NCBI GenBank assembly: GCA_039000515.1
Contig: JBCFYV010000225.1
Span: 35,301 to 99,300, forward strand
Direction: 5' to 3'
DNA from: Timema cristinae
Taxonomy: Eukaryota > Arthropoda > Insecta > Phasmatodea > Timematidae
DNA length: 64,000 nt
The notes beneath the pieces were generated by a model. The model was given only the letters and a program-made list of their open reading frames with translations. It was not told the DNA's origin and did no database searches. Position 1 is the first letter of the stretch. Each line of letters begins with the position of its first letter. The translations under genes and the position numbers were made by a program. Shown one piece after another: positions 28,182 through 47,599 of the stretch.

Positions 28182-28187
28182 TACAAT
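28182..28187. repeat. Polinton target-site duplication, left
   Basis: TACAAT, identical to 45,021-45,026. Six base pairs is the standard duplication length for Maverick/Polinton integration. Confidence 0.9.
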
Positions 28188-29060
28188 AGTAGGTCAGTTT
28201 ATGGTATAGAGGGGTATCCCCATTAATCACGATTTTAATGGTTCCTGAGATGACATGTTGATGGGTAGGTAGGGAGGTGGGGGGGAAGGGTTGGAGCACG
28301 CGATGTTGGTAGAGGGAGGGGGTGTAGAGCATCTGGGGTGCTGAGGGTTTGTGTCTCCTGGGATGGGGTTGAAGCACCTGGCTGTCTGAGAGATGTGAGG
28401 GGGGAGGGGGGAGGACACAACTTGGTTCTCCTCTCTCTCTCTCATCAGAGGTGATGGTTCAGGGTTGAGTGTTCTCTCTTACGACGAGCCGGCGAGTTTT
28501 TTTCTCGGGTCTCGAAGTATGCACTCTCCCTCCACGCAAATGCGGCTTCACTTCCCAATTCCTACGCGGGTGAGATATGACAAGTATATTCTCTCTCTCA
28601 AACCCTGACGGTCAAGATTGGGAATTAAGGATATGACAAGTATTATTCCCTTCTAAGTCAATAATCATTTAATGAGTTTAAAAGAATTATTTACATCAGG
28701 GTCGTGTGCGTGTGTTAGGATAACTGAACTTAATCTAAGACAATAATCGTTGAATGAGTTTTTAACTAACAATACAAGGTTTGTGTGTGTGCGTGTGAGT
28801 GTATGTGTAATTATCTTTAAATGAAGCTGGATTATGAAGAGTTGATTTCCTCGAAAAAACGAATGATATTTCTTCGCATACATATATTCAGTACAAAATT
28901 CTCCCTCTCTCTCTCTCTCTCTCAAAGTCTTAGTCTTTTCGGTATGGAGGAGGGGTTGATGGAGCACCCGGGCGAGGGGTGGAGGGGGAGACTATTTTTT
29001 AAAGGGTTATCCCTCTCTCTCTCTCTCTTCCATCATCGTGATGTAGTAGGGTTTGGGAGG
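28188..29060. repeat. Left terminal inverted repeat of the Polinton
   Basis: It matches the reverse complement of 44,150-45,020, starting AGTAGGTCAGTTTATGG. It contains several (CT)n and (GT)n tracts, which differ in length between the arms. Frames across it are microsatellite translation and not genes. Confidence 0.9.
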
Positions 29061-29286
29061 GCGGCTCGGGATATGACAAGTATATTCTCTCTCAAACCCT
29101 GACGAGCAGTCCTAGCAAAGATTGGGAATTAAGGATATGACAAGTATTATTCCCCTCCCTAAATAAATAGTACAGTTTTTTTTAAACCTAGTATATTCTT
29201 AATATTACATTGATACATATATATTCAGTACAAGATTCTTTCATGTATAGTCTTAGTCTTTTCAACATACACATACGTATAGTCTT
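29061..29286. repeat. Partial internal duplication of the left terminal repeat
   Basis: The stretch at about 29,070-29,150 repeats 28,570-28,652 (GATATGACAAGTAT, CAAACCCTGACG, AAGATTGGGAATTAAGG). The stretch at about 29,214-29,270 repeats 28,880-28,940 (ATATTCAGTACAA, GTCTTAGTCTTTTC). This copy lies inside the inverted-repeat arm, next to the first gene. Confidence 0.75.
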
Positions 29287-29835
29287 TCACCACTTGAAAA
29301 GTTCGTATTTGTCGTCGCCTAGATAGATCAGTCCGCGCTGCGACGCGTTAAACCGACTTCTGTATCTCGCACCAAAGTTTTTACCTGGAAGACGCACTTT
29401 ACCCACATAGTCCAGCGTCACGATGTTTGACTCGTCCTCCGGCTCGCTGATCTCTTCGTCTCCTTCCAGGCGACGAACGTTGTAGGCCCGATACTTTTCG
29501 AGTTCAGAGATGCTTATGACGCGGTCGAGTTCCTCCCGCTCGATCCGATCCAGCTCGATGCACAAAGCGTCTTCGTCGAGCAGGGGAGTGTCTTCGCTGA
29601 GAATTTGTGGCTCGTCCCCTTCCTTCAGCTTGTACACGGCACATGATGTTGAACAGTTCTCGACGGACTGACTCGCCTCGTACATTCCCGGATTATGGCA
29701 TCCGAGCCAGTGCACCGAAGAGTCGCAACACTCGCTGTAACCCTTCTCGGCTCTCGCGATGTAGTATTCCAAGCTGTTGTCTGAGATCTTAATTTCACTC
29801 ATGTCCTCCAGACGATAACCCAACCGTCTAAACAT
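29287..29835 (-). CDS. Uncharacterised Polinton protein next to the integrase, 182 aa
   Basis: I do not recognise the family. The start at 29,835 follows a TATA-like CATATAAAG about 40 bp upstream (about 29,870). The N-terminal half has a Cys/His-rich segment (CCDSSVHWLGCH, then two more Cys about 20 residues on) that could bind zinc. The middle is strongly acidic, with two clusters of Glu/Asp. The C-terminus is a compact segment from VGKVRLPGKNFGARYRS to an ELFKW end, which looks like a folded beta-rich tail. It is read in the same direction as the integrase, 20 bp downstream of it. A counterpart in the second Polinton (60,364-60,950) keeps the LPGKNFGA word, so it belongs to the element and is conserved. 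Confidence 0.75.
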   Translation of the reverse strand: MFRRLGYRLEDMSEIKISDNSLEYYIARAEKGYSECCDSSVHWLGCHNPGMYEASQSVENCSTSCAVYKLKEGDEPQILSEDTPLLDEDALCIELDRIEREELDRVISISELEKYRAYNVRRLEGDEEISEPEDESNIVTLDYVGKVRLPGKNFGARYRSRFNASQRGLIYLGDDKYELFKW

Positions 29836-29855
29836 TTCGAATGAGATGCGTCTCC

Positions 29856-30835
29856 CTACCTCCCGGTCGCTTTATATGCTCGGGATGGAGGGGTGAACAT
29901 ACCCTCACCCCCCTCTATATCCTTCGCATCGATCCACGAATTGTGTGTCGAGTCGAACCCTAACCATTTGATGTACGCTCTATTTCCGGAACGTCTGACT
30001 ATCTTCTCCACGAGGTAGACGTCGGGAAACGAAGTCTTTCTAAGTTCCTTAGCGTAGAAACCGCCCGTGATAGGGTTACCTTTCATATCTTCGAGTAGGA
30101 AGGTCCTGGGATTAGTCTCGACCACCTTGCGTATTTTAAACAGTTCCGTCGACCAGTTTGCGGTATAACCCTTTTCTAAAACGTCCTTATACTTGCTGAT
30201 ACGGACTATATCGCCCACTTTAAATACGTTCTGCGTGGAATCTGAGCTCTTGAAACGTTTATAGACTGTATGTAAAAGTCTATCGTCCTTGACGTCTATA
30301 GGTCTCATCTTTATGGTCGAGTGCACCGTACGGTTGTATTCGTCCAGTAAGGAGTCGATCATATCGATCCATCGATACGATCCTTTAGCAGTGAACCTCC
30401 TCCACATCATGTTCTTGAGAGTGCAATTAAATCGTTCAACGACGCTAGCCTTGACGTTGCTGTATGTAGAATAATGATTGATCCTCTTTCTCTCATGAGT
30501 GTTTTGAATTCTGCGTTGTAAAACTCCGACCCGTTATCCGTTTGAAGGTGACGTACACGAGGTAAACCTACCTTGTCGAGGAGGAGAGCCATTGCAACGC
30601 TGACGTTCTTACCCGTCTTAGTCTTGACGGGTGCGGCCCAAGCCCTCTTGGAATACACGTCGATGACGGTGAAAAGGTACTTGAATCCCTTATTCGAACC
30701 AGAGTAGGGTATCATCTCTACCAGATCGGCCTGAAGGAGCTCGTTCAAGCCTCGTACGCTAACATGTCTTCGAGGGAATCGTCGTCTTGCCAGACGATGA
30801 AGTTCGCGCGCAATCTCCCACTTGACACCGGACAT
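29856..30835 (-). pseudogene. Polinton integrase (rve superfamily) with C-terminal chromodomain, one frameshift
   Basis: It inserts the element DNA into the genome. The start is the ATG at 30,835. The catalytic core shows the first Asp in QADLVEM, the second in LQTDNGSEF about 65 residues later, and the Glu in VVERFN, giving a D,D,E triad. After the core comes an SH3-like segment (VGDIVRISKYK) and a chromodomain with VEKIVRRSGNRAYIKWLGF (about 30,010-29,930), expected to guide insertion to modified chromatin. One frameshift near 30,485, between the second Asp and the Glu, splits it into overlapping frames of 142 and 184 codons. As given it cannot be translated in one piece. Confidence 0.9.
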
Positions 30836-30837
30836 GA

Positions 30838-31603
30838 TTATGATAAAATATCGAAGAGTTGAATGTCTTTATCGATGATTCCCGCCTCGCGTAATTCCTC
30901 GATGATAGAAACGATCTCGTTATGGTGAGCGGAATGTCCGGCCTCGGTAGATGCGTGCAAGAGTCGTAATCGATCAACCAATTCGTTAGGATCGTCCCAA
31001 TAGGTATAATCGACGCCTCTTCCCGTCGCCATCTTGTATAAACCTTCACCCTCGAGCTCCTCTTCAAACATAGGTTTGATGATTAGCGAATACTTTGAAC
31101 CCGCCCGCATCTTGATACGAGCGTAAGGGTCGTTTCTCAAACGATGCGCGTTCGTTTCTTCGAGCATAGACTTGTATACTTTCAGATCATCCTTAGTATA
31201 ATGCGCAGGTGCACTTCTGAAGAGTAATTCTAATAGTCCTCGAGTATACGGTACCGTCTTATTGTTGAGAAGTATTGTTCCGTCTTTCCCGTAGAATACG
31301 ATAGGCGTATCTCCGAGCTTGGTAGAGTCGCCTTCATGACGTACCCCATATGTCTTATCAGAATACGTATGAGACGAATAAAGATAAGTATCCAATAGAT
31401 GGTTACTCTGCGATCTCTCGGGCGGGGCTTCGGGTTCGGGTTCGGCGAGCGCCTTCACAATCTTGTTTAGAGGTTCCGTGATAGGTTTGAACGTTTCATT
31501 TGCTACGTGCTCCGACTCGTGCCGAGCATCACGTAGTTGCTTATACTTTCGTTTAATAATCTTACTCGCTTTTATGATATCCTTCCGTGACCTTCGTCGA
31601 CAT
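30838..31603 (-). pseudogene. DUF8207-like Polinton protein, frameshifted near the start
   Basis: The main frame (206 codons from 31,458) contains a beta-rich block with LGDTPIVFYGKDGTILL, a YTRGLLELLF word, VYKSMLEETNAHR and a C-terminal HHNEIVSIIEELREAGII. I recognise this as the DUF8207-type protein commonly found beside Polinton integrases; its function is unknown. The ATG at 31,603, conserved in the second copy at 58,701, is out of frame with it because of one extra base in a run of four A (plus-strand TTTT at 31,570-31,573). Without that base a basic N-terminal helix rich in Lys/Arg would be included. It ends 3 bp before the integrase start. Confidence 0.75.
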
Positions 31604-31674
31604 GATGTAAGGTGAGAATGTCTCTTACGACGGAGAAACGGTTCATTATATACTAAACGTAAGTAAAACCTAAT

Positions 31675-32538
31675 TCAACGTGTAAAATCTGAGGCGTCGT
31701 CGTCGAGCGCGTTTACTATCATGAAAGATATAGAGTCATCTTTGAACACCTCGAAAGGAGGGGCGTCGATAATTTTAAGATTCAACAAGCAAATAATATC
31801 TTTCAAGTTCATGACCATCGTTGAAACGATGACCGCCCTCTTGAACTTATAACCGCGTTCACCTGTTAGAGTCAATTCGAAATGTCTCCCATCTTTCTTC
31901 AGAGATTTCGAATCCAAGTAGATGTAGATGAAACTGCGATTAACCGTAGAGTCTACATAAGCTTTAGACGCTGCGTCTGAAGGTAATGAGGGCATACCTA
32001 TGTTTCGCAAAACTATACCGTCTGCATCGTAAAGCTTGTTGTCATCCGGTCCCCTTAAGCGTAGTACACCTCCGGCTATAAAATCGTTGTAAATGGATCG
32101 ATGCATCTCGAAAGCTTCCTCTAGGCTTAACAGCTTAGAACGTAAAACGTCAAGCGTTGTTTTATTTTAGTTGAGACGATCCTCATGATGATGAGACAGT
32201 TTTCGCACCTCCTCTACCCCTTGACGAGCACTCTTCTCAAAGTTGATGTATTTCACTCGATTGTTCTCCAAATCCTCAATCAGCGATTCCATCTGTCCTT
32301 TGATGAGGTCCTTGGCAGTGTTGAGAGCCACTATCTGCTCGTTACTATGTCTCGCATCCATCCTATCGACGTAAGACTTGTTACAGACATCCTTAGATGT
32401 GACGGGCGACTCGACGTTGACGATCCTTTTCGATCTAGCGTCGTAATACCCTTGAGAATTTAGAGTTAGATTTCCCTCTGACTCGAAGAGAGATCTATAT
32501 TTGTAGAGACTATGACCGAATTTAGATATGGACGACAT
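31675..32538 (-). pseudogene. Fibre-like/coiled-coil structural protein, interrupted by an in-frame stop
   Basis: Two parts in one reading frame, 32,538-32,167 and 32,166-31,675, are separated by a single TAA at 32,167-32,169. Both halves carry the same short word ending in (K)-x-YVD (NKSYVDRM and SKAYVDST), a pattern typical of tail-fibre-like and virion-surface proteins in Polintons and phages. Between them is a predicted coiled coil rich in Glu, Lys and Leu. The C-terminal domain is beta rich. Alternatives are two separate genes or a read-through stop; the second copy (57,815-58,628) is too noisy to decide. It lies downstream of the packaging ATPase on the same strand. Confidence 0.6.
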
Positions 32539-32571
32539 GATGTCTTATCACGTACTGAACGCGTGTTCACC

Positions 32572-33264
32572 TCAATCATGCAAGATAAAGGTATCTAACC
32601 CGTAGTGATATCGTCCATTATCGATCTCATGATCTTTGATCAACACGAGAAAATCATACTTGTTTTCTTTCCAACACAGCGAGCACACCTCCTTGAATTT
32701 TTGGAAAGTCATATCCGTGTTTACATGATCATCGTAGACATGTCTCAGGTTCGTATCGTCCATCCTGAATAGGATGAGAAGATTAGCGTTATCTCTCAAC
32801 ATCTGTTTCGGGATGCGCGAGTACGTCTGACAGAGATAGAAACAGTCTATGGCCTTATGTCTACCCATACTGAAATAAGCCTGTATATTAAACTGTTTAT
32901 CGCAAGCAACGTCGTCAAATATAAATACAGAGTCGGGTTCAGCCTCGGACGGCGGGATAATTTCCGCGTTGTCGGAATAAGGGAAATAGCCCATGCCTTC
33001 AACGAGTGAGAGGACCTTCGATAAACGTTGATACTTAGGATGGTATAACGATTTTGAGTAAACGTACACGTTCTTGAAGCGTAGCCCGTTAGGTTCCTCC
33101 AACAGATTGATCATGGCGTTGGTTTTACCACAATTCGATGGTCCACAGATGATGCAGCGGATAGTATCAGGTAACAACGTACCATGTCTCTGAGGTAAAG
33201 CTCCTCCCTCATCATGTTTGTTGTTGTGTACAGTTAAAGAGTCTGTCTGTTTCTCGAACCGCAT
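32572..33264 (-). CDS. DNA-packaging ATPase (FtsK/HerA, A32-like)
   Basis: 230 codons, intact. Walker A is CGPSNCGKTNAM at residues about 40-51 and Walker B is SVFIFDDVACD at about 112-122. An RIPKQMLRDNANLLILF segment follows at about 150, where the sensor region of A32-like ATPases lies. This is the motor that would pump the element's DNA into a capsid, and the family is a hallmark of Polintons and adenovirus-like lineages. Its ATG (33,264) faces that of the phospholipase gene across 42 bp. The counterpart at 57,201 has synonymous changes in the Walker A region, showing past selection on the protein. Confidence 0.92.
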   Translation of the reverse strand: MRFEKQTDSLTVHNNKHDEGGALPQRHGTLLPDTIRCIICGPSNCGKTNAMINLLEEPNGLRFKNVYVYSKSLYHPKYQRLSKVLSLVEGMGYFPYSDNAEIIPPSEAEPDSVFIFDDVACDKQFNIQAYFSMGRHKAIDCFYLCQTYSRIPKQMLRDNANLLILFRMDDTNLRHVYDDHVNTDMTFQKFKEVCSLCWKENKYDFLVLIKDHEIDNGRYHYGLDTFILHD

Positions 33265-33306
33265 GTTGACGACTACTTCATCTATATAATGGACGCACCT
33301 ATATAA
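33265..33306. promoter_or_regulatory. Compact divergent promoter region with two TATA-like boxes
   Basis: The 42 bp between the ATPase and phospholipase start codons contain TATATAA at 33,283-33,289 and again at 33,300-33,306. The second touches the phospholipase ATG, so that ATG would lie upstream of the transcription start if this box is used, and a later or spliced start is possible. Confidence 0.45.
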
Positions 33307-33930
33307 ATGCTAATCAGTACGTGTCATGAGGCGAAGAAGAGGGGAGGTTTGTTGGATAAGATAATCAATAATCTACCGTTTGAAGCGCATATACCCGGAT
33401 ACCAGTACTGCGGACCGGGAACAAAGTTGAAAAAACGATTGAAACGGGGCGATCCTGGAATAAACGAGTTAGATCGACACTGTAAAGAACACGATATCGC
33501 CTACTCCAAGGTGAAAGATCTTGCAGGACGTCATACTGCAGATCGTGAACTTATAGAGAAATCGTGGAAAAGATTACTCGCGCCAGACTCGAAGTTGGGT
33601 GAGAAAGCCGCCGCATGGGCAATCACCAACGCTATGAAAGCTAAAGCCAAGATGGGTTCAGGTCTAAAGAAGAAGAAGACTCAACGTCGTCAGCGACGTC
33701 CTACTACTACTACTAGACGTCGTAAGAAGAAGGGAGGAATTCTACCTATACTACCTTTGATCGCAGCGCTTGGAGCCGTCGCCGGAGGAGCCGCAGGAAT
33801 CACCAAGGCCGTACAAAGTGCTAAGGCGAATACGAAACAATTGAACGAGGCTCAGAGACATAATCGTACGCTCGAAGCTATCGCCATGGGGAAAGTTATG
33901 TATCTACGACCTTACCCGAAATTAAAATGA
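33307..33930 (+). CDS. Minor virion protein with parvovirus-type phospholipase A2 domain and membrane-active tail
   Basis: 207 codons. The phospholipase part (about residues 30-90) has the calcium-loop motif YCGPGTK and the catalytic pair in KEHDIAYS, as in the VP1-unique region of parvoviruses, where it breaches endosomal membranes during entry. After it come a strongly basic stretch (about 118-142, KKKTQRRQRR) and a Gly/Ala/Leu-rich hydrophobic segment (about 143-165). These resemble the basic core and membrane-lytic peptides of adenovirus-type minor proteins. The start at 33,307 is the only in-frame ATG, but a conserved CGTGTCATGAGG-like word just downstream in both copies hints at another organisation. 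The stop at 33,930 directly abuts the protease frame. Confidence 0.88.
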   Translation: MLISTCHEAKKRGGLLDKIINNLPFEAHIPGYQYCGPGTKLKKRLKRGDPGINELDRHCKEHDIAYSKVKDLAGRHTADRELIEKSWKRLLAPDSKLGEKAAAWAITNAMKAKAKMGSGLKKKKTQRRQRRPTTTTRRRKKKGGILPILPLIAALGAVAGGAAGITKAVQSAKANTKQLNEAQRHNRTLEAIAMGKVMYLRPYPKLK

Positions 33931-34287
33931 CTACCTAAACGTGCCCTTAGTGAAACGGATCTGCGCAAGTATGCCGTCGAGTTAAAAATCCCCTTCTTTA
34001 GAGGAGTATTTGCGAGAGATGCATTACCTAATGGTCCTCCTTGGAAGATAGAGAACGCCATCATCAATCTTGACGATGATAGTGGTAAGGGTACGCATTG
34101 AGTGGCGTATAAGAAAAACGGTGAACGGGCGGTTTACTTCGATAGTTTCGGTGATCTAAGGCCACCGCTCGAACTTGCCCAATATCTCAGAGGAATACCC
34201 ATCACATATAATCATACTCGGTATCAAGAGTACGGCACCGTTTTATGCGGACATCTTTGTTTAGCTTTCCTTAAATACTCACGTTGA
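33931..34287 (+). pseudogene. Adenain-like cysteine protease with a nonsense codon beside the catalytic His
   Basis: This is a C5-type maturation protease that would process capsid precursors. The reading frame is recognisable from 33,931 (LPKRALSETDLRKYA) to the stop at 34,287. The catalytic His is in GTH (34,096-34,098), the acidic residue in VYFDSFGD, and the Cys in LCGHLCLAF (TGC at 34,246-34,248). The codon right after the catalytic His is TGA (34,099-34,101), where the family has Trp. The second copy appears to have TGG there. No ATG is visible at the beginning because the frame follows the phospholipase stop without one. It is therefore doubly broken as given. Confidence 0.85.
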
Positions 34288-34305
34288 CGTTCGAACTTAG
34301 TAAAT

Positions 34306-35016
34306 ATGTCTATGACACTTACACTGAGAGGTCAGAGTTTGAATCTGACAGAGAACTACTTCCCGCATATCCTGCTCGGAGAAGAGAATCGTGAAGAAGA
34401 ATGGTTCATCGGACTGATCAATCTGGCCACGTTCAATTCCATACCGAACATTGACGAACGTAATAATAAATTTTTTTGCGACGGTAAAGAGTATACAGTC
34501 CCTCCAGGCACCTATGAACTTGAGGCGTTGGATCGATTCTTGCGAAGGGAAGTCCCGAGTAACGTAAAGCTCTCGATTATCGGTGACCCTAGCACTTTAA
34601 AGAGCTATATCACTTGCAATAAACCTATCGACTTTACCCGACCTGGTACGTTTGCATCCTCGCTAGGGTTCGACCCAGTCATACTTCCTGCAGGGAAGAC
34701 GCACATATCTACCAATACTGTGAATATTCTTCACGTGAATGTGATCCGTGTAGAATGTAGTCTCGTTAGCGGGACTTACGTCAACGGAGAACCGAGTCAT
34801 ACCTTGCACGAGTTCAGCATGACCGTCCCGCCAGGCTATAAGATAGTGGAAGCGCCTAACAATATCATTTACCTTCCGGTAACGAAGCGAGTAATAGAGT
34901 CTATCTCGGTACGACTTGTTGACGAGCGAGGAGATATCGTCAACTTTAGAGACGAGACTATATCACTACGTCTACATCTGAAACGACTCGCTGGAGATGG
35001 TACTCGTACTAGATAA
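34306..35016 (+). CDS. Penton-like minor capsid protein (single jelly roll)
   Basis: 236 codons, intact. It follows the protease by 18 bp and precedes the major capsid gene, the usual place of the Polinton minor capsid (penton) gene. The protein is rich in beta strands and polar loops: an N-terminal TLRGQSLNL, an internal FTRPGTFASSLGFDP and a C-terminal block ending ETISLRLHLKRL. These are the repeated pattern seen in Polinton penton proteins. It should form the fivefold vertices. There is no transmembrane segment or signal peptide. The counterpart is at 55,545-56,214. Confidence 0.82.
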   Translation: MSMTLTLRGQSLNLTENYFPHILLGEENREEEWFIGLINLATFNSIPNIDERNNKFFCDGKEYTVPPGTYELEALDRFLRREVPSNVKLSIIGDPSTLKSYITCNKPIDFTRPGTFASSLGFDPVILPAGKTHISTNTVNILHVNVIRVECSLVSGTYVNGEPSHTLHEFSMTVPPGYKIVEAPNNIIYLPVTKRVIESISVRLVDERGDIVNFRDETISLRLHLKRLAGDGTRTR

Positions 35017-35126
35017 AACAAGACGGCGAAGTCTTCCTCGAAACATTGAGAGAAGGACAGTGAAAGCGTTAAAACACCTGCCAATAAACTCTATTTAAGA
35101 CGTCTAGGTTACTCGTTACGAAAATA

Positions 35127-36361
35127 ATGGATGACGTCGTGGATATTCTGAACATTGGGGAGTGTCGCTTTTGATACAGCCTTGGCCAGTTTTCCAGTAT
35201 CATTCCTACGCCTCGTATATTCCCGGTCCGTTAGCTAACGGGAACGAGCTTAGGATATCTATCCAGCAAGAAGGGTTATGCACCCTACCTCACCGCTCTC
35301 TGCTACATATCAAAGGGCGACTACTTTTGAATACGGGAGAACCTGGAAGCACTTCGAGAATTGTTAATAACGGAATACTGCATCTATTCTCAAGAATCGC
35401 CTATGAGATCAACGGGGTAGAGATTGATCAATCGAGAGATGTGGGTATTTCGACCCAACTTAAAAACTATCTATCTATAAGGAATGGTTGGCAGACTCAT
35501 CTTTCAAACGCGGGTTGGAGGTTTGAAGGAGTTCACGTACATGCTGAAACGGGCATCTTTGACGTATGCATCCCTTTACGTCTCATACTAGGATTCGTTG
35601 AAGACTATTCCCGAATACTGATCAACGCGAAACAAGAGCTGGTGCTAGTTCGTTCCACCAGCGACAACAAACGCTTTACAAAGAGCCCCACCTCCTGCTG
35701 CAGAGACACCCTCTAGGATTGAGTTAAGTAAAATATCTTGGCTTGTACCACATATAAAGACTGATGATATCAATCGTCTCAACCTGCTTAATTTCATCAA
35801 GTGCGGGAGGATCATCGAGCTACCTTTCCGTACTTGGGAATTGTACGAGTACCTAACGTACCCACCTCTAATCAGCATGATTGGACTGTGAAAACGTCAA
35901 CTTTGCTGGAGAAACCTCGTTACGTTGTTTTCGCGCTTCAGACCGGACGGAACAATACGACGGTAGCAGATAGAAGTATTTTTGACCATTGTAATTTACG
36001 TAATGCTAAACTCTATCTAAATTCTAACATGTACCCTTATGAGGATATGAACTTGAACTTTAGACAAGATTCCTTCTCGAAATTATACGAAGACTACGCC
36101 AATTTCCAGACTTCGTACTACGGAACGAGCGCCTCTTTACCTTTACTTGATTCTTCCCATTTCAAGTCTCACGCACCCATCGTTGTGTTCGATGCCAGCC
36201 GACAGGAAGATACTCTCAAGGACGGTATGGTGACGTGTCGTATAACGTTCGAGACGGAGGAAAATATCCCTGTAAATACCAAGGCGTTTTGTCTCATCAT
36301 TCACGATAGAGTGGTCCGCTATAACCCTTCAAGCAGTGATGTAAGCAAGATGACATCATAA
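35127..36361 (+). pseudogene. Major capsid protein, double jelly roll, with about three frameshifts
   Basis: The start is ATG 35,127, a position conserved in the second copy (55,439). The sequence begins with a short acidic helix, shifts frame near 35,158, and continues with QPWPVFQYHSYASYIPG and an ARRIAYEINGVEID-like jelly-roll strand. It shifts again near 35,680 and near 35,860, then finishes with NLRNAKLYLNSNMYP and NTKAFCLIIHDR. The length, about 410 codons, fits Polinton double-jelly-roll capsids, which build the icosahedral shell as hexon-like trimers. As given no complete capsid protein can be made. The frameshifts could be real decay or assembly errors; surrounding genes in this copy are mostly clean, which favours real. 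Confidence 0.85.
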
Positions 36362-36473
36362 AGAGGGAAGACCTAATTGTTCTCAACTATTAAAGGAACT
36401 GAGAGGATGTCTCGGCTACAGAGTGTTATCGGTGACGATAGTGTCAAGTACAGACTAGACAAACCCTGCTAAA

Positions 36474-36779
36474 ATGTCTGAGTACTCTGCGAATGGTTTA
36501 AGAATTTTAAGTCTGATTGGTCAAAACTTTTGCGATCTAACCAAGAGTGCGATGCGGAACGATACGAGTTCGGTTATTCCAGCATTGCTTCATATGATAG
36601 CCCTGATAAACGAGTATAAAGAGTACATAGATTTCAATAAGTTATCATGCGTCTGCGGTCAAGATGAGGTTGACATGACCACACGGAAGAAGAAAACTAC
36701 AGACGCTTCTAAACGTAAGCTCGGAAAGAAGATGGAGCCTGCAAAGAAGAAGCCTCGAGAGGAGTCGGAGGAAGCGTAA
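36474..36779 (+). CDS. Small basic-tailed Polinton protein, 101 aa, unknown
   Basis: I do not recognise the family. The N-terminal part is helical and hydrophobic (LRILSLIGQNF, then IPALLHMIALINEYKEYI). It is followed by a CVCGQ pair of cysteines and a very basic C-terminus with several Lys-Lys-Lys runs ending in acidic residues. The tail looks like a nuclear-localisation or DNA-condensing segment, so a core or assembly role is possible but inferred. It is the last gene of the plus-strand virion cluster. A recognisable counterpart sits at the same place in the second copy (53,830-54,126), arguing it is real. Confidence 0.7.
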   Translation: MSEYSANGLRILSLIGQNFCDLTKSAMRNDTSSVIPALLHMIALINEYKEYIDFNKLSCVCGQDEVDMTTRKKKTTDASKRKLGKKMEPAKKKPREESEEA

Positions 36780-36789
36780 GTCCTCGATT

Positions 36790-37930
36790 ATCACAAGAAT
36801 TAATGATGATTGGATTAAACGTACGAATCTTGTAATAGGGCTCTAATGATTGGAAAAAAATAAATGTTTAATATATGAATCTTGTAATTAACATTTAATG
36901 ATTGAAAAAAATGTTTAATGTATGAATCTTGTAATAGGGTTCTAATGATTTTAACTTTTAATGTTGTTTAACGTAATTAACTTTTAATGAAAAATTTGGA
37001 ATAAATGTTTAATAAAGAATTATTGATTATAACTTTCATTGTATCATTTAATCAGTGAGGAGGGAGAGGAGACGGATGAAGGTAAGGAAAGAAATAATGA
37101 AAAAATACCATCCATAATTATGAATCTTGTAAAAGAATTAATGAAAGAGGAAAAAAATGTTTAATGTAATTAACTTTAAATGTATGAATCTTGTAAAGAA
37201 TTAACGAGGATTAGAAAAAAATAAATGTTTAATGTAATTAACTTTTAAACGTATGAATCTTGTAATAGGGTTCTAATGATTGAAAAAAAAAATGTTTAAG
37301 TTCTAATGATTTTAACTTTTAATGATTGAAAATAAATGATTAATGTAATTAACTTTTTTAAAAGTAAATCTTTAACGTAATTAACTTTTAATGAAAAATT
37401 AGAAAAAAATGTTTAATATAATTAGCTTTAAACGCATGAATCTTGTAATAGATTTTTAAAAAAATAAAGAATTATTGATTATAACTTTCATTGTATTATT
37501 TAATCAATGAGGGGAAGAGGAGGGAGGATGAAGGGAAGGAAAGAAATATAGAAAAAACACCATCCATAATTAATTCTATTTAATGAATATAAAGATTTAA
37601 AACACATAGATACATACTAAATTAGTCGTTTTTTTCACAAGTTATAGTTCTTGAAATTGTTGTTTTTTTTATTTAAAACACATAGATACAAGTTATAGTT
37701 CTTGAAATTGTTTTTTTATTTAATGAATATAAAGATTTAAAACACATAGATACATACTAAATTAGTTGGGTTTTTTTTCCACAATTATAGTTCTTGAAAT
37801 TATACATTAACACTAATCACTTACACATATAGTACAGGACGTGAATATTTTTTTAATCACTTACAGTATAGAACATGAATATTTTTTGTTTCAATCACTT
37901 ACAGTACTGAACATGAATTTTTTTAGGTTT
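36790..37930. repeat. A/T-rich tandem repeats between the virion cluster and polymerase
   Basis: Units built from GTATGAATCTTGTAATAGGG, TTCTAATGATTG, AATGTTTAATG and TAATTAACTTTTAATG recur throughout, with a larger duplicated block containing ATTGATTATAACTTTCATT and a GAGGGAGGA word (near 37,020 and 37,470). Copies of AGTTATAGTTCTTGAAATTG and of CACTTACA-TA-A follow toward the polymerase end. No gene. Confidence 0.85.
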
Positions 37931-37965
37931 AGTTATGATTTTTTTTTTCATAGACGCACTGTTCA

Positions 37966-40900
37966 CTATAGATTTGACGGTCTGATTGAGTAATGGGACC
38001 ATGGAAGAGTATTGACAGTTCCTGGTACTTTATATCTTTTGTCGTCGATAGAGCATAGAGCGACCCTATTGAATTTTTGTGTGTAAAGTTTGAATCCTAC
38101 AGCTCTTATTGAACGAGCTTCTCTCATGACTATCGTCTCATCTGTCAAACAATTACGATAATCCTCTAATGAAAGCGTTCTTAACGCGCTACTCTTCACC
38201 CCTTTAGCCTTGAGAGTCTCCCCAACTCCTTGTACTGAGAATGAATAGAGTTTAGGACGTAAACCAATGAACTCAGTGATGATCTGACCTCGAGTCTCGT
38301 CTTTTAGTTAACCGAGCACCCCTTTATTTTACTACGGGCATCCTGTAAACATTGTCTTGTCCGTAGGTGGAGGTGTCCAGATACTCATTAGCTAACAGGG
38401 CGAGTCTCTGGTATGCATCTTCAACAGTCATGTAGTAGAGAAGTGAGTCAGTATCATTGTATTGAAGTTTTAACGTACCTTGGGGGAAGGCAGGGATCAT
38501 AACCTGGTAATGCAGACCGTACATGACTACCTTCGAGATTTCCAAAATGGCGAATCCCGCATAGATAGGCATATAAAAGTAAATCTCTTGCGGCTCCATC
38601 TCGATGATGACTGGGTTTTCTGACACTATCGAGGGGTTTTTAAAGTTAGGACTGGCTATGAGGTTACCCGCTCCAAATTTCCCATCCCACTGGTAGCTAT
38701 CTTTATCGTACGGTAAGCTCTCTTGTTAGATATGAGGCGGCCAAATGCGGCATTGTTCATCAGTTTGAAAAACATGTTTTCAAATTGATTACTCGCTTTA
38801 CTCCTCATTTCCGCGTTCAACCTGATATACGGAGCCATCCACGGTGCTTGCTTGAAACTGAGAGAATACGGTGAACTCTCCTCAGTTTCAACCCGTTCGC
38901 TAAACATAGCTTTAGATGACGGTAGTGAATGACGTACCGGTCTTATCAGCTAAAGTTGTTAACAGTTTCTCATGTTTCCCTACGGGTGGAATCCCTTTCT
39001 CAGGGACAGAACGGCAAGTCAGAATGAGCGTCGTGCACAAGTTGCGGGTATTCAAGATCTACCTGCAAGATATAGCCCGTATCCGATTCATCCTCTACTT
39101 TTAGCATGTCCAATCGAGCAATTTCGTCATCTTCGAGCCACCTGAACTCTCCATAGGGAAGTGAGGACAGCATACTAAATGAATAGAGTCCATTTACGTC
39201 TAGATAGAAAATGTAGGACTCTGGCTTGGAAGGATCAAACGCGTCCATATAGCGATTATTCGCTACAGCGTGACGATTAGCCACAAAACATATCCCTCCG
39301 CGGATAGCTCCCTCAATGAATTGATGAGTGTTCACATCATCGATTAATTCGAGCCGTACCGTGTTATTCTCAATAGAGCCTGGTACGCTAGACTGGGAGC
39401 TGTAAGGGACCATCTGGGATCGAGCCTATACGTCTTCATGCAGAGATCACGAAAGTTCTCAAAGACGTCGCCCAGTAAAGTTACATCCGTGTACAGTAGA
39501 GGTTCGAATAGTCCCAAAAAATTCTTACATTCGAATACTCGCCAACCTCACAGGCGTGATCATAGTCTTCCAGAGAGATATGACTATCCGTGAGCGCGTT
39601 GAAAATTTATCTTTGCTCGGTAACTGAGTCTCGTCTAGCCGCTCGAATGAATCAATATAATCATAGGGGAACACTCCTTTTTTGTGTGACTAATTTGAAG
39701 CGTTCATCCTCGGGATGACACTTACGCGTGATTTTAAGTTGCCCGGGTTCGAGGTAAGATACGCATTTCTCTAAGGAAGTACATAGAAAACTGAAACTAT
39801 CTATAATTTTAATTGTGATCCCTCGAAACCCGCACCAAATATATTTCATGATTACTTTGAATCTTCCCATAGTCTCTCCAATAACTCTGACTTTTAGCGG
39901 ATTGATGAGAACGCTCTCTCCCGTGAACGGATCAGTTTCTCTACGTTCAACGAGTGATTCTAGAAGGAAAAAATTATCGTAGCAACGTGCGTTATGGATT
40001 ACTACGCTCAGGTGACTCGGGTTCTTGTAATTATATTACACCCTGCGTGACAACTCCCGATAAAGCCCAGTAGAGTGACAATGATCCATAACCCGAATAT
40101 CATCATTCTTGTAGGGCTTCTCGCATATATGCAATGAGAGGCTGTATTATGAGCGTCTCTTTGAGCAGGAGTTAACGGTTTCATCGGTACAACTGTACTA
40201 TAGTACTCTAGTACACTCCTCGCAGTATCTATGAGCGCCTCAACAAATTGTTCAATACAATCTTTTCCCGTGAAATGACGGTACTCGAGAGACTATCGTC
40301 AAAATTACATTTAACGTACATTCCTACAGAATAAGCTACATGACGCTGAACATTCTCAGTATATGAAAATTTTGGGTCGGGATCACTCGTCTCTATAGGC
40401 ATAAGTAGGCTCTCCAGGTCAGCATATACGATAAATCCTGTTTTCTCCCTGCTGCTTATACTGAGTGAACGTGAGGAATTTATCCTGCCCTTGAGGGAAT
40501 GTACTCCTTACCGCGTCGAATTTTATACATGCCTCTTTATGTTTTGTGAGTTTGTTTTCAGTCAAAAAAGCGGACAGGCATCTATCACAAAAGTATCTAC
40601 GTCCCCGCTAGACACTCGCGGTAGTTTAGGGTTTATTAACCGTGACAGATTTTTAATTCCGCTGAAATGATAATGTTCTGTCCCGTGTACTCTTATCATG
40701 AATAAACGTACATGTCTAGCGCGCTCTTTAGCATGACGTGTACGGGATCATTACTAGTTTTTTTAGAGGTGTCAGCAGTATCAATATAAGAGTCACTCCC
40801 ATCATGCTTTGCAGTGTACACATTTACAGATATATCGTTAAGCTTTTCAAAACGCTCGATTATCTCATTTGGAAAGGGAGAGGGATCCCCATCTAGATTC

Positions 40901-41590
40901 AACACGTCTCGAAAATTAGGGTAAGAGGATAAACGTTGAGCTTTTCCCGTCGGTTCAAAAAGACAGGATAAAACAGAATACAGGGAAACAATGACCTTCT
41001 TCACATTGCACATTTATTCAGTGCTTTCCGGTTGGCTATAGTTTCCGGATTTGAACCCGAGCCCCGATCGTGAAAACCGTGTTTTTAGATAGATTTATTC
41101 TCATCTCCCAATGTACCGTCATAACATCCAACCTGAGTCTCTAGAAACAAAACCTTCAATTTGAGCAAATAGGGGGAAAACTACATTATTCTCATATAAC
41201 TCTTCCAAGTTTGTAGTGCTAAATATACCGCATAGACTAGAGTTGAAATACCCTTTCTCAATTCACCTTCGGTTAGGATGTCTAAACTCGCAAATGAGGC
41301 TGCAATTTACCTTTATCGAGTCATTTGCAATTGTTTCTTCTACCGTCTTTACGTATATACCTCCGCACGCGACAAGAAACTGGACGGGATCCTTGTAAGG
41401 CAATTCGTTAGTGATAGAATAGGTTTTTATACGGTGGGTGTACGCCTGCTCATAAGTTTCAATGAGAGGCCTAACGGTTCCAGGTAAAGTCTAAACTGGA
41501 TAAATCCCGTACCTAAGTCATGTGACTGAGTCAAAAGTGTCCGGATCTGTCTATCTATATCCTCATGTCCGAGTATCAAAACGCTCGAGG
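37966..41590 (-). pseudogene. Protein-primed family B DNA polymerase, multiply frameshifted
   Basis: This replicates the element. The N-terminal region (about 41,590-41,030) has the pre-exonuclease sequence of Polinton polymerases in broken frames. An open stretch at 41,013-40,696 follows, then a C2H2-like zinc-finger segment near 40,590-40,550, an exonuclease-I-like ADLESLL near 40,420, and a DHCHSTGLYR word near 40,080. Polymerase motif A is LDVNGLYSFSM (about 39,215), motif B KLMNNAAFGR (about 38,755) and motif C YNDTDSLLY (about 38,460). The C-terminus is at 38,199-37,966. About ten frame changes or stops interrupt it. Motif A has Gly where Ser is usual (DxNSLYP). The total of about 1,200 codons fits the family. 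Confidence 0.88.
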
Positions 41591-41880
41591 TCTTAAATCA
41601 ACCCTGGTGTATGCTCAATGTATGCCTTATATACTTGTTGTGATATCACGTTTTAGATAATTAATTAAAAGTTGCTCATTCGAGGTTTAATTCACGGAGA
41701 GTATACGCTTTATTTCCATTTATTTGTCGAGATATAATAATGGAGGGAGAAGAAAAGCGCGCTCTTTTAGCTGGAGGTTCTGCCATTTAGCCTCCTCTCA
41801 TTCAGGTACGGTCCCCAGTGGGCTCTAGACGACTGTAAACAAACAAAAAGGAACGACTATAAGAGTAATCACAAAAAAAG
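41591..41880. other. Intergenic segment of the Polinton
   Basis: No gene seen. It contains the region upstream of the polymerase gene and a short purine-rich stretch. Confidence 0.4.
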
Positions 41881-42130
41881 TCTGACACCTTACCCCCCTA
41901 GACCATCAGGCTACCTAGCTGCTTCAGTCACTGCCTTACTCTCGTATTGGGAGGGTCAAGATTCGACTCTCGCCCAGGATGGTTTTTAACCTAATGGTTT
42001 TTCTAGTCTCTCTAACCATGCAAATTTGTACACATTCCCTCTAAAAATATAACCTTATTAATCCCTAAACAGTATTACTATGTAAGTGTATAACCAGAAC
42101 GGCTAGTATGGAAGATTTCTACGAAAGCTG
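41880..42130 (+). mobile_element. SINE inserted in the Polinton, tRNA-like head of a second type
   Basis: The head has a tRNA-like promoter with B-box GATTCGACTC (about 41,954) and is different from the head of the two other SINEs. The 3' part contains GTATAACCAGAACGGCTAG, which matches GTATAACCCGAACGGTTAG in the other SINEs. I could not fix a target duplication, so the ends are approximate. Non-coding. Confidence 0.65.
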
Positions 42131-42799
42131 TTTGTGATATTTTTTAGTTTACTGTAAATACAGAAAGGTTTAAATGTTTCTTTTTTTTTGTCGCTGAATG
42201 TTGCTGTCCCTCGCTCCCTTCCGTTAAAGAAGAAAAGAGAAGAGAAGAAGGTAACAAAAAAAGTGTGTTTAAACTCCCTGGATCCCTTCTGTTAAAAGAG
42301 AGTGGAAAATGTCTGTTTAAACTCATTTCAAAAACGACTCAAGTAGGTGTTTTTTTTTAAAACTATTCACTCGTGTTAAATTCTCGATATTCCTTTTAAA
42401 GAATTATTAACCATGACGAAAATGTACTTAAACTATTTACATTTTCACCTGAAAACAATTCAATGATTATTGACTTAGGTCTTACGAGGAATAGATTAAA
42501 CACAATTATCCTTGGAAGTGAGGTTTGAACCTTGTATTGTTAGTTAATGATGTAAACAATTCCTTTTTTTAAACTATTCATTCGTTGATTATTGGCCAGG
42601 ACCGAGGATTGAACCCTGGACCTCTATGTTTACCAGGTTTATTATTGAGTGTCAATTGAAGGAGCTGTTGTCCCGGTTTACCGTAAATGTAACCATCAGG
42701 CCTAAATTTTGATGACATGTCATCTTTTTTTGTTACATATAATTTCTCATAATTACATAATAAACTGTTCATGAAAATTCTGTATTTTTTTTTTGAATT
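42131..42799. other. Polinton intergenic DNA with terminal-repeat-like words
   Basis: It carries words also found in the terminal repeats, such as CCTTGTATTGTTAGTTAA and GATTATTGACTTAG, but no gene. A short run of AGAGAAG and poly-T tracts is present. Confidence 0.5.
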
Positions 42800-43370
42800 T
42801 AAGGTCATATTCCTTGATTTGTTTAATTTTTTAGGTCTGATTAGGCCTATTGCGTAATTAATGTTGAATAATAACTTATCTTTAGTGTCACTTTTATAAA
42901 TAATCTTGAGCAATTGAGTAATTGATATAAATTTCTCCAATTTAGTTAATTAACCCAAGAACATCGCAAGTTAATTGTTTAATTTTTTTTTGGTCTGATT
43001 AGGTCTATTCGCATAATTCATGTTGAAAAAAGTAACTTATATTTAGTTCACTTTTAATAAATAATCTTGAACAATCGAGTAATTGATATATTACTCCAAT
43101 TTAGTTTAAATTAACCCCTAAGAATCATCGCAAGTTAATTGTTTATTTTTTTAGGGCTGATTAGGCCTATTGCATAATTCATGTTGAATAAGTAACTTAT
43201 ATTTAGTGTCACTTTTAAAAAAATAATCTTGAGCAATCGAGTAATTGATATATTACTCCAATTTAGTTAATTAACCCTAAGAAAAATCGCAAGTTAATTG
43301 TTTAATTTTTTGGGTCTGATTAGGCCTATTTGCATAATTCATGTTGAAATAAACAATTCTTTTAAACTCA
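42800..43370. repeat. Tandem repeat of about 170 bp, more than three copies
   Basis: Each unit has GGTCTGATTAGGCCTATTG, CATAATTCATGTTGAATAA, CACTTTTA-AAATAATCTTGAGCAAT and GCAAGTTAATTGTTTAA in that order. Units start near 42,835, 42,998, 43,155 and 43,315. Variation is mostly small indels in poly-T and poly-A runs. Confidence 0.88.
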
Positions 43371-43582
43371 TTCAAAGTTTATTGACTTAGATTAAGTTCA
43401 GTTACCCAACAACACACACACACACACATTGTTAGTTAATGATGTAAAAATTCTTTTTAAACAATTCAAAGATTATTTTTTATTTAAATGATGTAACAAT
43501 TCTTTTTAAACTCATTCAATGATTATTGACTTTAGTTAAGTTCGCTTATCCTAACACAACACCCCACACACTTACCTTCAAA
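43371..43582. repeat. Internal copies of terminal-repeat words
   Basis: Two imperfect copies of TTTAAACTCATTCAATGATTATTGACTTAG with CA-rich tracts, like those inside the right terminal repeat at 44,440-44,560, lie between the tandem array and the small gene. Confidence 0.6.
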
Positions 43583-43840
43583 GTTCAGGTGGCTGTTTTG
43601 GTGGCGGAGAGAAACCTTTTGTAAACAAGTAGTAGATCCTCTTTCGAGATATCCTCTATCTGAACGTCGCTGAGCGTCGAAAAATTTCGGGGCAGCCAAA
43701 CTTGATACTTGGCATCGACCCACAGTAAGTATACGATGACCGAACGCGTATTTACCGTTTTTTATTGAAAAATACGGTACGCGTGACCTATCTCCAATCA
43801 GTCAATTTTACGTGGAAGTATCTCATTACTTCCCACCTCC
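43583..43840 (-). pseudogene. Small conserved Polinton protein with KYxVWLPxxF motif, frameshifted
   Basis: On the minus strand the sequence reads, in two frames, an NGKYAFGHR segment and then AKYQVWLPRNFSTLSD followed by a DISKEDLLLVYKRF segment to a stop at about 43,583. I recognise this arrangement (a beta strand with FG-RR, then a KYQVFLP-RF word and a LSK-DL-LVY word) from small proteins of about 90-120 residues common in insect Polinton-like elements. The function is unknown to me; the compact beta-rich pattern could suit a nucleic-acid-binding fold, which is inference. A paralogue with clearly different residues is at 47,015-47,238. A frame change near 43,725 breaks this copy. Confidence 0.6.
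43744..43784. repeat. Imperfect hairpin around ACGCGT
   Basis: ACGCGTA...CCGTTTTT and AAAAATACGGTACGCGT form an imperfect inverted repeat with a short TATTG loop. It lies inside the 5' part of the small gene, so it may be coincidental. Confidence 0.4.
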
Positions 43841-44149
43841 GTCAAAAATGCAGCCAAAAATTTCCCTGACGCCCATGGTTATATAGCTACCAGTTAATGT
43901 TTTGGGCTGACCACCCCTATTTATAAGCTCCAAGCCACGCCTCTCTCCCTCCCCCTCCCCCAAAGTACACGGATCTAGACCCTCAACACAAAGTATTATG
44001 ATTCTAAGCAGTCACTTGGAAAGAAATTTATGTTCTAAAATACCTTGACTGTTATGGGAATATAGGCCTTTCAAGAGCAGCTGCCCAGCTGTGCACTGCA
44101 GTCACTAGGTCAAGCCCCCCACAACACACTTCACCGTGTGGGCACCTTA
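43841..44149. other. Spacer between the small gene and the right terminal repeat
   Basis: It contains a possible promoter for the leftward small gene (CTATTTATAAGC at about 43,917-43,928) and no supported gene. A minus-strand frame at 44,052-44,348 runs into the terminal repeat and resembles nothing. Confidence 0.4.
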
Positions 44150-45020
44150 TAACCCTGCCCATAGGGTCTACACCTACGTCACGATGATAGGGATAAAAAA
44201 CATCTGGGTCCGTTGAAGGATAACCCCTCCCCCCTCGCCCGGGTGCTCCATAAAACCCCCTCCTCCCCGAAAAGACTAAGACTTTGAGAGAGAGAGAGAG
44301 AGAGGGAGAATTTTTTGTACTGAATATATGTATGCGAAGAAATATCATTCGTTTTTCGAGGAAATCAACTCTTCATAATCCAGCTTCTTTTAAAGATAAT
44401 TACACATACACTCACACGCACACACACAACCTTGTATTGTTAGTTAAAAACTCATTCAACGATTATTGTCTTAGATTAAGTTCAGTTATCCTAACACACG
44501 CACACGACCCTGATGTAAACAATTCTTTTAAACTCATTAAATGATTATTGACTTAAGGGAATAATACTTTTCATATCCTTAATTCCCAATCTTGACCGTC
44601 AGGGTTGAGAGAGAGAAATACTTGTCATATCTCACCCGCGTAGGAATTGGGAAGTGAAGCCGCATTTGCGTGGAGGTAGAGTGCATACTTCGAGACCCGA
44701 GAAAAAAAACTCGCCGGCTCGTCGGAAGAGAGAACACTCAACCCTGAACCATCACCTCTGATGAAGAGAGAGAGGGAGAACCAAGTTGTGTCCTCCCCCC
44801 CTCCCCCCTCACATCTCTCAGACAGCCAGGTGCTTCAACCCCCATCCCAGGAGCACAAAACCCTCAGCACCCCAGATGCTCTACACCCCCTCCCTCTACC
44901 AAAATCGCGTGCTCCAACCCTTCCCCCCCACCTCCCTACCTACCCATCAACATGTCATCTCAGGAACCATTAAAATCGTGATTAATGGGGGTGCCCCTGT
45001 ATACCATAAACTGACCTACT
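44150..45020. repeat. Right terminal inverted repeat of the Polinton
   Basis: Reverse complement of 28,188-29,060, ending CCATAAACTGACCTACT. Differences are mainly in (GA)n and (CA)n tract lengths and in C-rich runs. Confidence 0.9.
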
Positions 45021-45026
45021 TACAAT
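45021..45026. repeat. Polinton target-site duplication, right
   Basis: TACAAT, identical to 28,182-28,187. Confidence 0.9.
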
Positions 45027-45927: not shown

Positions 45928-46880
45928 TGCAAGTAAACGCAAATGACTTGTTCAGATTCAGGCAGGATTGTCTCAGTGGTAGGAAACTCTACGGACGTGC
46001 TCGGATCTCAAACGTAATTTACTAACACGATAATTTCGTATTGACTTATACCGCCAAGGACGTGGTAATTTAAAGGGTTCGAATATCGGTTGGGTGGACT
46101 GGGGTGGATTTCCCTAAATAGTTTTCCATTTAAATCTCCCTCCACATATATGTAGAATTTCAAGGACAGTGTGTTTAATTTTATAAACAATCTATATAAA
46201 CTAAAATAAGTTTATGGAAAAAATAAAAGCATGGTATATCTCATTCTCCATATTAATAAAGTTCACAATAGTAAGACAGAAAGTCAACTTTCAGATCACA
46301 GAGGGGGTGAGGGATGGAGGAGGGTGAGGTAATTGATCGTGCCTCACTCCTCTCCCCTTCCTCTCCCCTCCCTCGCCGTAGTCTCGCGTGTTCCCCCCCC
46401 CTCCCGCCGCGTGGATTCGCGGTTGTGTATAGAGGGGGAGAAGGAGGTGTGACATTAGAGAAAAGGCTTACACGATTGGTCGAGATAAAGAATCTTGTTA
46501 TAAGGATGTTAAGATTTCCCATGAACTAAAAAGGGTTAACCCTTAATCCAGCTTCTCAAAACCCCGAGTTGAAAAAAGGTCCTTCTTTCCGGGGGTGACA
46601 AATGAAGAATGTTTTCCTGTCAGCTTAGCCCTCTCTTGCTTTTCCCTACTCGGCGGCTGACACGTGAAAAATGTTTTCCTGAAAAATTAGTCGTTCGGCT
46701 CGGCTCCCAAAACCGAGAGAGTGCTTTAACTCGGAAGTTAACATCTGTTTCGTAACATCTGCGTCTCAGAGGTCTGTGAGAATTTTACAAGAGGGGGACT
46801 TTCTCACGCAGTAAAGAGGGAGGAATCAAGTGAGTTAAACCTTTTTTTCGCGCCGCCTCCTGAAGAGGGGGAGTAGTTTT
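45928..46880. other. Intergenic DNA; A-box-like word, G/C-rich hairpin and short direct repeat
   Basis: GTCTCAGTGGTAGG at about 45,970 resembles a tRNA A-box, but no B-box follows at the right distance. At about 46,312-46,352 GAGGAGGGTGAGG and CCTCACTCCTC form an imperfect hairpin in a G/C-rich patch. At 46,595-46,682 a TGACA-GTGAA-AATGTTTTCCTG word is repeated twice. The second Polinton must begin somewhere here, but I see no match to the first element's terminal repeat. Base quality appears to worsen from about 46.5 kb. Confidence 0.4.
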
Positions 46881-47014
46881 CTTCTATATATTGAGTTACC
46901 CCTTTAAGTAGAATCCATTATCTTTTAAATCTTTATATTCTAAACAACATATCAAGAATGTTAGTGAATATTCAGCACGCTTTTGTCAGCAATCGGTTCG
47001 AGTGAGATGTGTCA

Positions 47015-47238
47015 ATGAAGCTGACAGATTTAGAGATAGGTCATGGTTATTATATCACTAATATAAAAGGCGTGAGACGACGAATATGGGCGCAGAGTTC
47101 TCCGCCTTGTTGGAGGACAAATATAACGTGTGGTTACCGGCTCGTTTTTCCCCTGCTTACCGGCCTCAGCTGAAGGAGCTCTCCAAAGCCGACCTACCCT
47201 GGTCACCGGGGTTTTTTCAAAACAGCAAGACGGCATGA
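47015..47238 (+). pseudogene. Second-copy small protein with KYNVWLP motif
   Basis: The ATG at 47,015 opens a frame starting MKLTDLEIGHGYYITNI. After a frame change the sequence gives ALLEDKYNVWLPARFSP and a LSKADL word. The order of motifs is that of the small protein at 43,583-43,840, but the residues between them differ clearly, so the two are diverged relatives and not error-laden duplicates. Its better preserved N-terminus shows what the first copy has lost. Function unknown. Confidence 0.6.
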
Positions 47239-47510: not shown

Positions 47511-47511
47511 T

Positions 47512-47578: not shown

Positions 47579-47579
<1 letters not shown>

Positions 47580-47599
47580 AAAAATTTTTAAAGATCAAA

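What the first reader, a model, noticed from the sequence alone, without database searches (positions are those of the whole stretch)
28182..45026. Polinton delimited to the base pair by AG...CT ends and TACAAT duplications
The sequence shows matching terminal repeats ending exactly at 28,188 and 45,020 and an identical hexamer on each side. That is the textbook signature of integrase-mediated Polinton insertion (6-bp TSD, AG termini). It gives a complete 16.8-kb element with a full adintovirus-like gene set, which is rarely recoverable so cleanly.
Basis: partly seen in the sequence, partly recalled or inferred. Interest (0 to 1): 0.75.

Follow-up and report, generated by a model that had tools for sequence, protein, structure and literature searches.

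The report
Polinton insertion with matching empty sites

Summary
Confirmed to the base. The element spans 28188-45020, with about 800-bp inverted repeats, AG...CT ends and a TACAAT duplication. The same insertion is on four contigs (C20, C225 = window, C628, C2409). The host is probably a Timema stick insect (COX1 97%). The genes are those of a Polinton/adintovirus: RVE integrase with chromodomain, A32-type ATPase, PLA2-like protein, double jelly-roll capsid, PolB. "Complete" needs qualifying: PolB is open in none of the four contigs, the capsid changes frame in all four, and the protease-like frame has one stop shared by all four; many other breaks differ between contigs and look like assembly errors. 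Two by-products may interest specialists more: a second Polinton with unrelated ends 1.25 kb away, and a 15.4-kb element sharing this element's ends, with its own 6-bp duplication but none of the Polinton proteins tested. New member of a known kind.

The parts
28182..28187 (.). left copy of the target-site duplication TACAAT
   Evidence: single copy in empty contigs C4, C316, C317
28188..45020 (.). Polinton (16,833 bp)
   Evidence: same insertion on C20, C628, C2409
28188..28987 (+). left terminal inverted repeat
   Evidence: (96.2% to 45020-44224)
29287..29835 (-). ORF of unknown function (182 aa)
   Evidence: no Pfam or PHROG match and no PDB sequence match; homologue in the neighbouring element
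29859..30868 (-). RVE integrase with C-terminal chromodomain; two frames in the window, one open frame of 337 aa on C2409
30838..31674 (-). ORF without a family match over cut-off, conserved in the neighbouring element; function unknown
31675..32166 (-). ORF with weak similarity to phage tail-fibre profiles
   Evidence: best E 1.5e-4
32167..32544 (-). ORF with weak similarity to phage tail-fibre profiles
   Evidence: (best E 9.7e-8)
32572..33264 (-). A32-type genome-packaging ATPase
   Evidence: Pox_A32, over cut-off; open in 3 of 4 contigs; 1656 homologues
33307..33930 (+). phospholipase A2-like protein with a weak Adeno_PX match (below cut-off)
33931..34287 (+). presumed adenovirus-type cysteine protease (motif recalled; no Pfam match for the C-terminal piece, N-terminal piece not searched); in-frame stop 34099-34101 shared by 4 of 4 contigs
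   Evidence: homologous frame open (118 aa) in the neighbouring element
34306..35016 (+). presumed minor capsid (penton) protein, by position only
   Evidence: no Pfam match; fold prediction inconclusive, mean pLDDT 39
35135..36358 (+). double jelly-roll major capsid protein; two frames in the window, one frame of 373 codons on C20 and 384 on C2409, both changing frame near the 3' end
36474..36779 (+). small ORF (101 aa), unknown
37969..41868 (-). family B DNA polymerase (PolB) in fragments
   Evidence: PF03175 in pieces, one over cut-off; 575-aa frame on C2409, E 1.8e-25
44224..45020 (-). right terminal inverted repeat
45021..45026 (.). right copy of the target-site duplication TACAAT
46270..62616 (.). 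second, inverted Polinton directly after CACAAT; right end not found, 62616 is only the limit of the alignment to L037

Best explanation
The stretch is an endogenous Polinton (Maverick; adintovirus-like) in the nuclear genome of an insect, probably a Timema stick insect. Shown: the end-to-end structure, the duplicated hexamer and the undivided target site in three other contigs. Inferred from the known biology of the family: a linear DNA copy made by the protein-primed PolB was joined to the chromosome by its RVE integrase, which attacked the two strands of TACAAT six bases apart; repair of the gaps made the duplication. The insertion looks recent on the scale of this assembly's haplotypes: the two inverted repeats differ by about 1% and the filled and empty flanks by about 0.7-2.9%. 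The copy has been inactivated at least in its protease-like gene and probably in PolB.
For: Ends, repeats and duplication. Empty sites: exact 35-base match over the joined flanks with a single TACAAT on 3 contigs, collinear over about 1.48 kb left and 1.24 kb right, and on C4 also over window 19560-26700 at 98.3%. Same insertion on four contigs. Integrase (rve, E 1.3e-12), chromodomain (E 7.7e-5, just under its cut-off), A32 ATPase, PLA2-like protein, double jelly-roll capsid and PolB. Capsid relatives at 34-50% identity (120 listed of 136); those listed with an organism are all insects. Repeat-to-repeat substitutions: 8 of 796 sites (C2409), 8 of 795 (C20), 9 of 797 (C628), 23 of 791 (window, whose right part carries differences from all three other contigs). 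COX1 97% to Timema.
Against: None of the seven contigs that carry this locus is chromosome-sized, and seven are more than a diploid needs, so allele and paralogue cannot be told apart. In the left flank the filled contigs differ among themselves at 6-14 of about 1470 sites, not far below the 18 that separate two of them from empty C4. The target lies in a dispersed repeat (nine further imperfect matches). The chromodomain score is just below Pfam's cut-off, and the protease and penton are assigned by motif or position only. The genome-wide count of this repeat by DNA search did not complete.
Confidence: 0.96

Rival explanations
1. The frame breaks in the window are real decay and the element is an old fossil.
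For: PolB is open in 0 of 4 contigs and the capsid reaches its end in one frame in 0 of 4; a stop in the protease-like frame is shared by 4 of 4; PolB breaks near 38.5 and 40.18 kb appear shared by C20 and C2409.
Against: Many breaks differ between contigs, and C20 and C2409 differ from the window mainly by indels over 28-42 kb; integrase is open on C2409, ATPase and the presumed penton on three contigs each; the repeats differ by only about 1%.
Confidence: 0.25
2. The empty contigs are not a pre-insertion state but precise excision products or assembly deletions.
For: Precise loss cannot be excluded from sequence alone.
Against: Three contigs share the join without a footprint; they also lack the second Polinton at its own target; and they differ from the filled contigs by substitutions in both flanks.
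Confidence: 0.03
3. Filled and empty contigs are paralogous segmental copies rather than alleles.
For: Seven contigs carry the locus (4 filled, 3 empty), more than two haplotypes allow, and none is chromosome-sized.
Against: In the right flank the four filled contigs differ at only 1-7 of about 1240 sites, and C4 and C317 at 0 of 1241, so the seven may be about three haplotypes assembled redundantly.
Confidence: 0.4

Closest known systems
Polinton/Maverick elements (class Polintoviricetes)
   Same: RVE integrase, PolB, packaging ATPase, double jelly-roll capsid, long inverted repeats, AG-type ends, 6-bp duplication, size close to the 16,862-bp mean of intact vertebrate elements (PMC8097293, passages)
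   Different: PolB, capsid and the protease-like gene are broken in the copies seen; nothing in the architecture departs from the family
Adintoviruses (animal Polinton lineage; definition in PMC11071296, passages)
   Same: hexon-type (double jelly-roll) capsid; rve integrase with a C-terminal chromodomain
   Different: the N-terminal OTU-like domain of PolB was not found in the fragments searched, and no comparison with the reference adintoviruses was made
Polintons of Hymenoptera such as the wasp elements in PMC6035795 (passages)
   Same: insect hosts; the named capsid relatives include wasps and ants
   Different: host is probably a stick insect; capsid identity to its listed relatives is only 34-50%

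Membership tests
Polinton/Maverick | 6-bp target-site duplication | tested here: met
Polinton/Maverick | long terminal inverted repeats with AG/AGT...CT/ACT ends | tested here: met
   vertebrate end motifs in PMC8097293 are repeated AG or AGT, here AGTAGG
Polinton/Maverick | retrovirus-like (RVE) integrase | tested here: met
Polinton/Maverick | family B DNA polymerase, protein-primed | tested here: met
   PF03175 in pieces and in a 575-aa frame of the same insertion on C2409; protein priming itself not testable here
Polinton/Maverick | packaging ATPase | tested here: met
Polinton/Maverick | adenovirus/Ulp1-type cysteine protease | tested here: inconclusive
   frame at 33931-34287 next to the capsid genes, motif recalled; the one piece searched (C-terminal) has no Pfam match
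Polinton/Maverick | double jelly-roll major capsid protein | tested here: met
Polinton/Maverick | single jelly-roll minor capsid (penton) protein | tested here: inconclusive
   by position only; no Pfam match, fold model mean pLDDT 39
Adintovirus | integrase with C-terminal chromodomain | tested here: met
   PF00385, E 7.7e-5, but 23 bits against a cut-off of 25.1
Adintovirus | PolB with N-terminal OTU-like domain | tested here: inconclusive
   no OTU match in the PolB pieces searched, which are fragments
Adintovirus | hexon reciprocally recognisable by BLASTp with reference adintoviruses | not tested
   no reference sequences were fetched

The most novel reading that the evidence does not exclude
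The ends act as a movable module separate from the genes. A 15.4-kb element (C1458, same insertion on C12 and C236) has nearly the same first 97 bp and its own 6-bp duplication (ATCTTA), yet none of 16 Polinton protein pieces matches it and its core is largely minisatellite: a large non-autonomous Polinton moved in trans. Conversely, the neighbouring Polinton is 77-92% alike in its genes but has unrelated ends. Polintons would then have parasites of their own, and swap ends.
Probability: 0.4. Interest if true: 0.5.

Novelty: new member of a known kind. Interest (0 to 1): 0.28.

Why it matters
It gives a base-exact Polinton insertion with matching empty sites in one insect assembly. The 6-base integration footprint is therefore read directly rather than inferred, and the insertion can be genotyped in host populations. 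It also warns that frame breaks in such elements can be assembly errors: integrase, ATPase and the presumed penton are each open in some contigs with this insertion and broken in others. The gene-less element with Polinton ends, if confirmed, would be the more instructive find.

Tried and rejected
Searches for close relatives in viral contigs (ATPase: none; capsid: 11 pattern matches, none confirmed) and in phage records (ATPase; integrase: none). The PDB search of the 29287-29871 frame gave nothing up to E 1. The fold of the presumed penton, predicted without an alignment, was too poor to search, so no fold search was run. The idea that the copy at 50-61 kb in the window is a decayed fossil was rejected: at 48-52 kb the window differs from each of three other contigs at 8-13% of bases plus 6-11% indel positions, while the same neighbour on C628 aligns to the first element at 92% with only 8 gap openings over 31.7-35.8 kb. 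The right end and duplication of the second element were sought on C628:59000-68000 and 69000-74000 and not found; LINE-like sequence (named by eye) lies there. The capsid family count, the copy count by repeat DNA and both junction patterns of the second element did not complete by the genome search. Papers not held: the ids 10.1093/ve/veaa055 (Starrett 2021) and 10.1073/pnas.0600833103 (Kapitonov and Jurka 2006); both are recalled only. No phrase for a non-autonomous or defective Polinton/Maverick was found in the paper library (0 papers; a looser search gave 53 papers, 10 listed, none opened). Timema with 'endogenous viral elements' gave 0 papers; Timema/Maverick/Polinton/transposable element, any two, gave 522, 12 listed, of which two name Timema once or twice and neither was opened. 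No paper was read whole: passages of PMC8097293, PMC6035795, PMC11071308, PMC11071296 and PMC4028283 were seen; all others only in listings.
Full report
TACAAT stands at 28182-28187 and 45021-45026. Between them lies a 16,833-bp element that begins AGTAGGTCAG and ends CTGACCTACT. The arms 28188-28987 and 44224-45020 are inverted copies at 96.2% over 809 columns. Identity falls to background at about 28988 inside and is near background just outside (17 of 60). Random flank hexamers agree in 95 of 200,000 draws.

The window is positions 35301-99300 of a 99.3-kb contig (C225) in a 1.29-Gb assembly of 7605 contigs. The best COX1 match in that assembly, read with the invertebrate mitochondrial code, is 97% identical to that of Timema; the next of the 120 listed relatives, mostly cockroaches, are at 89%. 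The host is therefore taken to be a Timema species.

A 35-base pattern made of the left flank, one TACAAT and the right flank matched 12 places: three exactly (C4, C316, C317) and nine with two or three mismatches. For the three exact places the flanks are collinear over about 1.48 kb left and 1.24 kb right. For C4 a further 7.1 kb matches (window 19560-26700, 98.3%, 78 mismatches in 7172 columns). Of the other nine, five were held as loci; they share only short or 71-91% similar stretches around the site, so the target sits in a dispersed repeat. The empty contigs also lack the neighbouring Polinton: CACAAT is followed there by other sequence, alike in all three.

The same insertion, with the same flanks, is on C20, C628 and C2409. 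In the right flank, substitutions among the four filled contigs are 1-7 per about 1240 sites, against 9-15 to C4 and C317 and 19-23 to C316; C4 and C317 differ at 0 of 1241. In the left flank the filled contigs differ among themselves at 6-14, and from the empty ones at 18-43, of about 1470 sites; C4 and C317 differ at 7 of 1502. Three haplotype classes would explain this, but seven contigs also allow segmental copies, and none of the seven is chromosome-sized. The two inverted repeats differ at 8 of 796 sites on C2409, 8 of 795 on C20, 9 of 797 on C628 and 23 of 791 in the window. At an assumed 2.9e-9 substitutions per site and year (recalled), 1% would be about 1.7 million years; this is a rough inference that ignores gene conversion.

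Gene content. On the minus strand, from 33.3 kb down: an A32-type ATPase, two small ORFs with weak tail-fibre profile matches, an ORF of unknown function, an RVE integrase with a C-terminal chromodomain, and another unknown ORF. On the plus strand from 33.3 kb: a PLA2-like protein, a presumed protease, a presumed penton, a double jelly-roll capsid and a small ORF. On the minus strand at 38-42 kb: PolB. The 120 capsid homologues listed of 136 found are 34-50% identical, and those listed with an organism come from insects. The ATPase has 1656 homologues at E <= 0.001, 120 listed, without organism names.

Intactness, described only. In four contigs with the same insertion: the integrase is open on 1 of 4 (C2409, 337 aa); the ATPase on 3 of 4; the presumed penton on 3 of 4; PolB on 0 of 4. 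The capsid runs in one frame for 373 codons on C20 (350 to the end of one locus and 23 in the next) and 384 on C2409, but in both its last part lies in another frame, so it is open to its end on 0 of 4. The protease-like frame is interrupted by a stop at 34099-34101 in 4 of 4, while the homologous frame of the neighbouring element on C628 is open. Many breaks differ between contigs. Over 28-42 kb C20 and C2409 differ from the window mainly by indels; C628 does so less clearly, and in window 38-39 and 39-40 kb it carries about 15% and 9% substitutions with no matching rise in indels, as if from a paralogue. From about 42 kb rightwards the window acquires differences from all three other contigs, reaching 8-13% substitutions and 6-11% indel positions at 48-52 kb. 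The right part of the window therefore looks like raw-read quality, and C20 shows something similar towards its own left end.

Neighbour. A second Polinton begins at 46270 (AGTAAGACAG, after CACAAT), 1.25 kb from the first and inverted to it. It is 92.3% identical to the first over 31.7-35.8 kb, about 89% over 29.6-31.7 kb and 77-86% in PolB, yet its first kilobase in the window has no significant match to the first element's ends. Its right end and second duplication were not found on C628:59000-68000 or 69000-74000; LINE-like sequence lies there.

Sibling. The 21-base end of the first element occurs at 12 places. Four belong to a different element: 15,445 bp on C1458, with the same insertion on C12 (a 130-Mb contig) and C236, where one end each was found. 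It is flanked by ATCTTA on both sides on C1458. Its first 97 bp are 96-98% identical to the right end of the window's element, and its own inverted repeat is 94.7% over 433 columns. Sixteen protein pieces of the window's element or its C2409 copy gave no tblastn match (E <= 1e-4) in the four loci searched (L018 and L019, the whole C1458 copy; L025 and L028, parts of the others), while each of five loci with neighbouring Polinton sequence gave 6-10 matches. Of ten ORFs of 140 aa or more in L018 and L019, nine are minisatellite by eye; the tenth has no Pfam or PHROG match. This looks like a large non-autonomous Polinton.

Mechanism. Shown: ends, duplication and empty target. Inferred from the family: protein-primed copying of a linear DNA, integrase strand transfer with a 6-base stagger, gap repair. 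Polinton features follow PMC8097293, PMC11071308 and PMC4028283 (passages seen); the adintovirus definition follows PMC11071296 (passages).

Noticed in passing
window 46270-62616: Second, inverted Polinton 1.25 kb from the first, 77-92% alike in its genes but with unrelated ends; also absent from the three empty contigs.
   Followed up: partly
L018-L019 (C1458:19651-35095); same insertion at L025 (C12) and L028 (C236): 15.4-kb element with nearly the same first 97 bp, its own 6-bp duplication ATCTTA, a largely minisatellite core and no match to 16 Polinton protein pieces; one 194-aa ORF of unknown family at L018:6318-6899, minus.
   Followed up: partly
window 42000-64000: Differences from three other contigs rise towards the right, to 8-13% substitutions plus 6-11% indel positions at 48-52 kb: probably raw-read quality, so frames there should not be read as biology.
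   Followed up: yes
L015 (C628), matching window 38000-40000: About 15% and 9% substitutions in two 1-kb bins of the C628 copy without a matching rise in indels, as if this piece came from a paralogous Polinton: gene conversion or assembly chimera.
   Followed up: no
window 8544-14204 and 63178-64000: LINE-like sequence (Jockey-like by eye, no family search made); a relative lies beyond or within the second Polinton on C628.
   Followed up: no
window 26646-26941 and 45642-45922: Two direct copies (80%) of a short repeat with a tRNA-like promoter motif by eye, a likely SINE, one on each side of the element.
   Followed up: no
genome G000: 55 COX1 matches, many partial, on large contigs and with stops other than TGA: probable nuclear copies of mitochondrial DNA.
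   Followed up: no
L020 (C1458:35096-45095): Another Polinton relative close to the 15.4-kb element, with matches to window 29.3-30.2 kb and 38.0-40.2 kb, as if internally deleted; Polintons may cluster here.
   Followed up: no
L022:1136-1501, plus (C2409; about window 43520-43885, minus): 122-aa ORF near the right repeat with no Pfam match over cut-off; possibly a further gene of the element.
   Followed up: no
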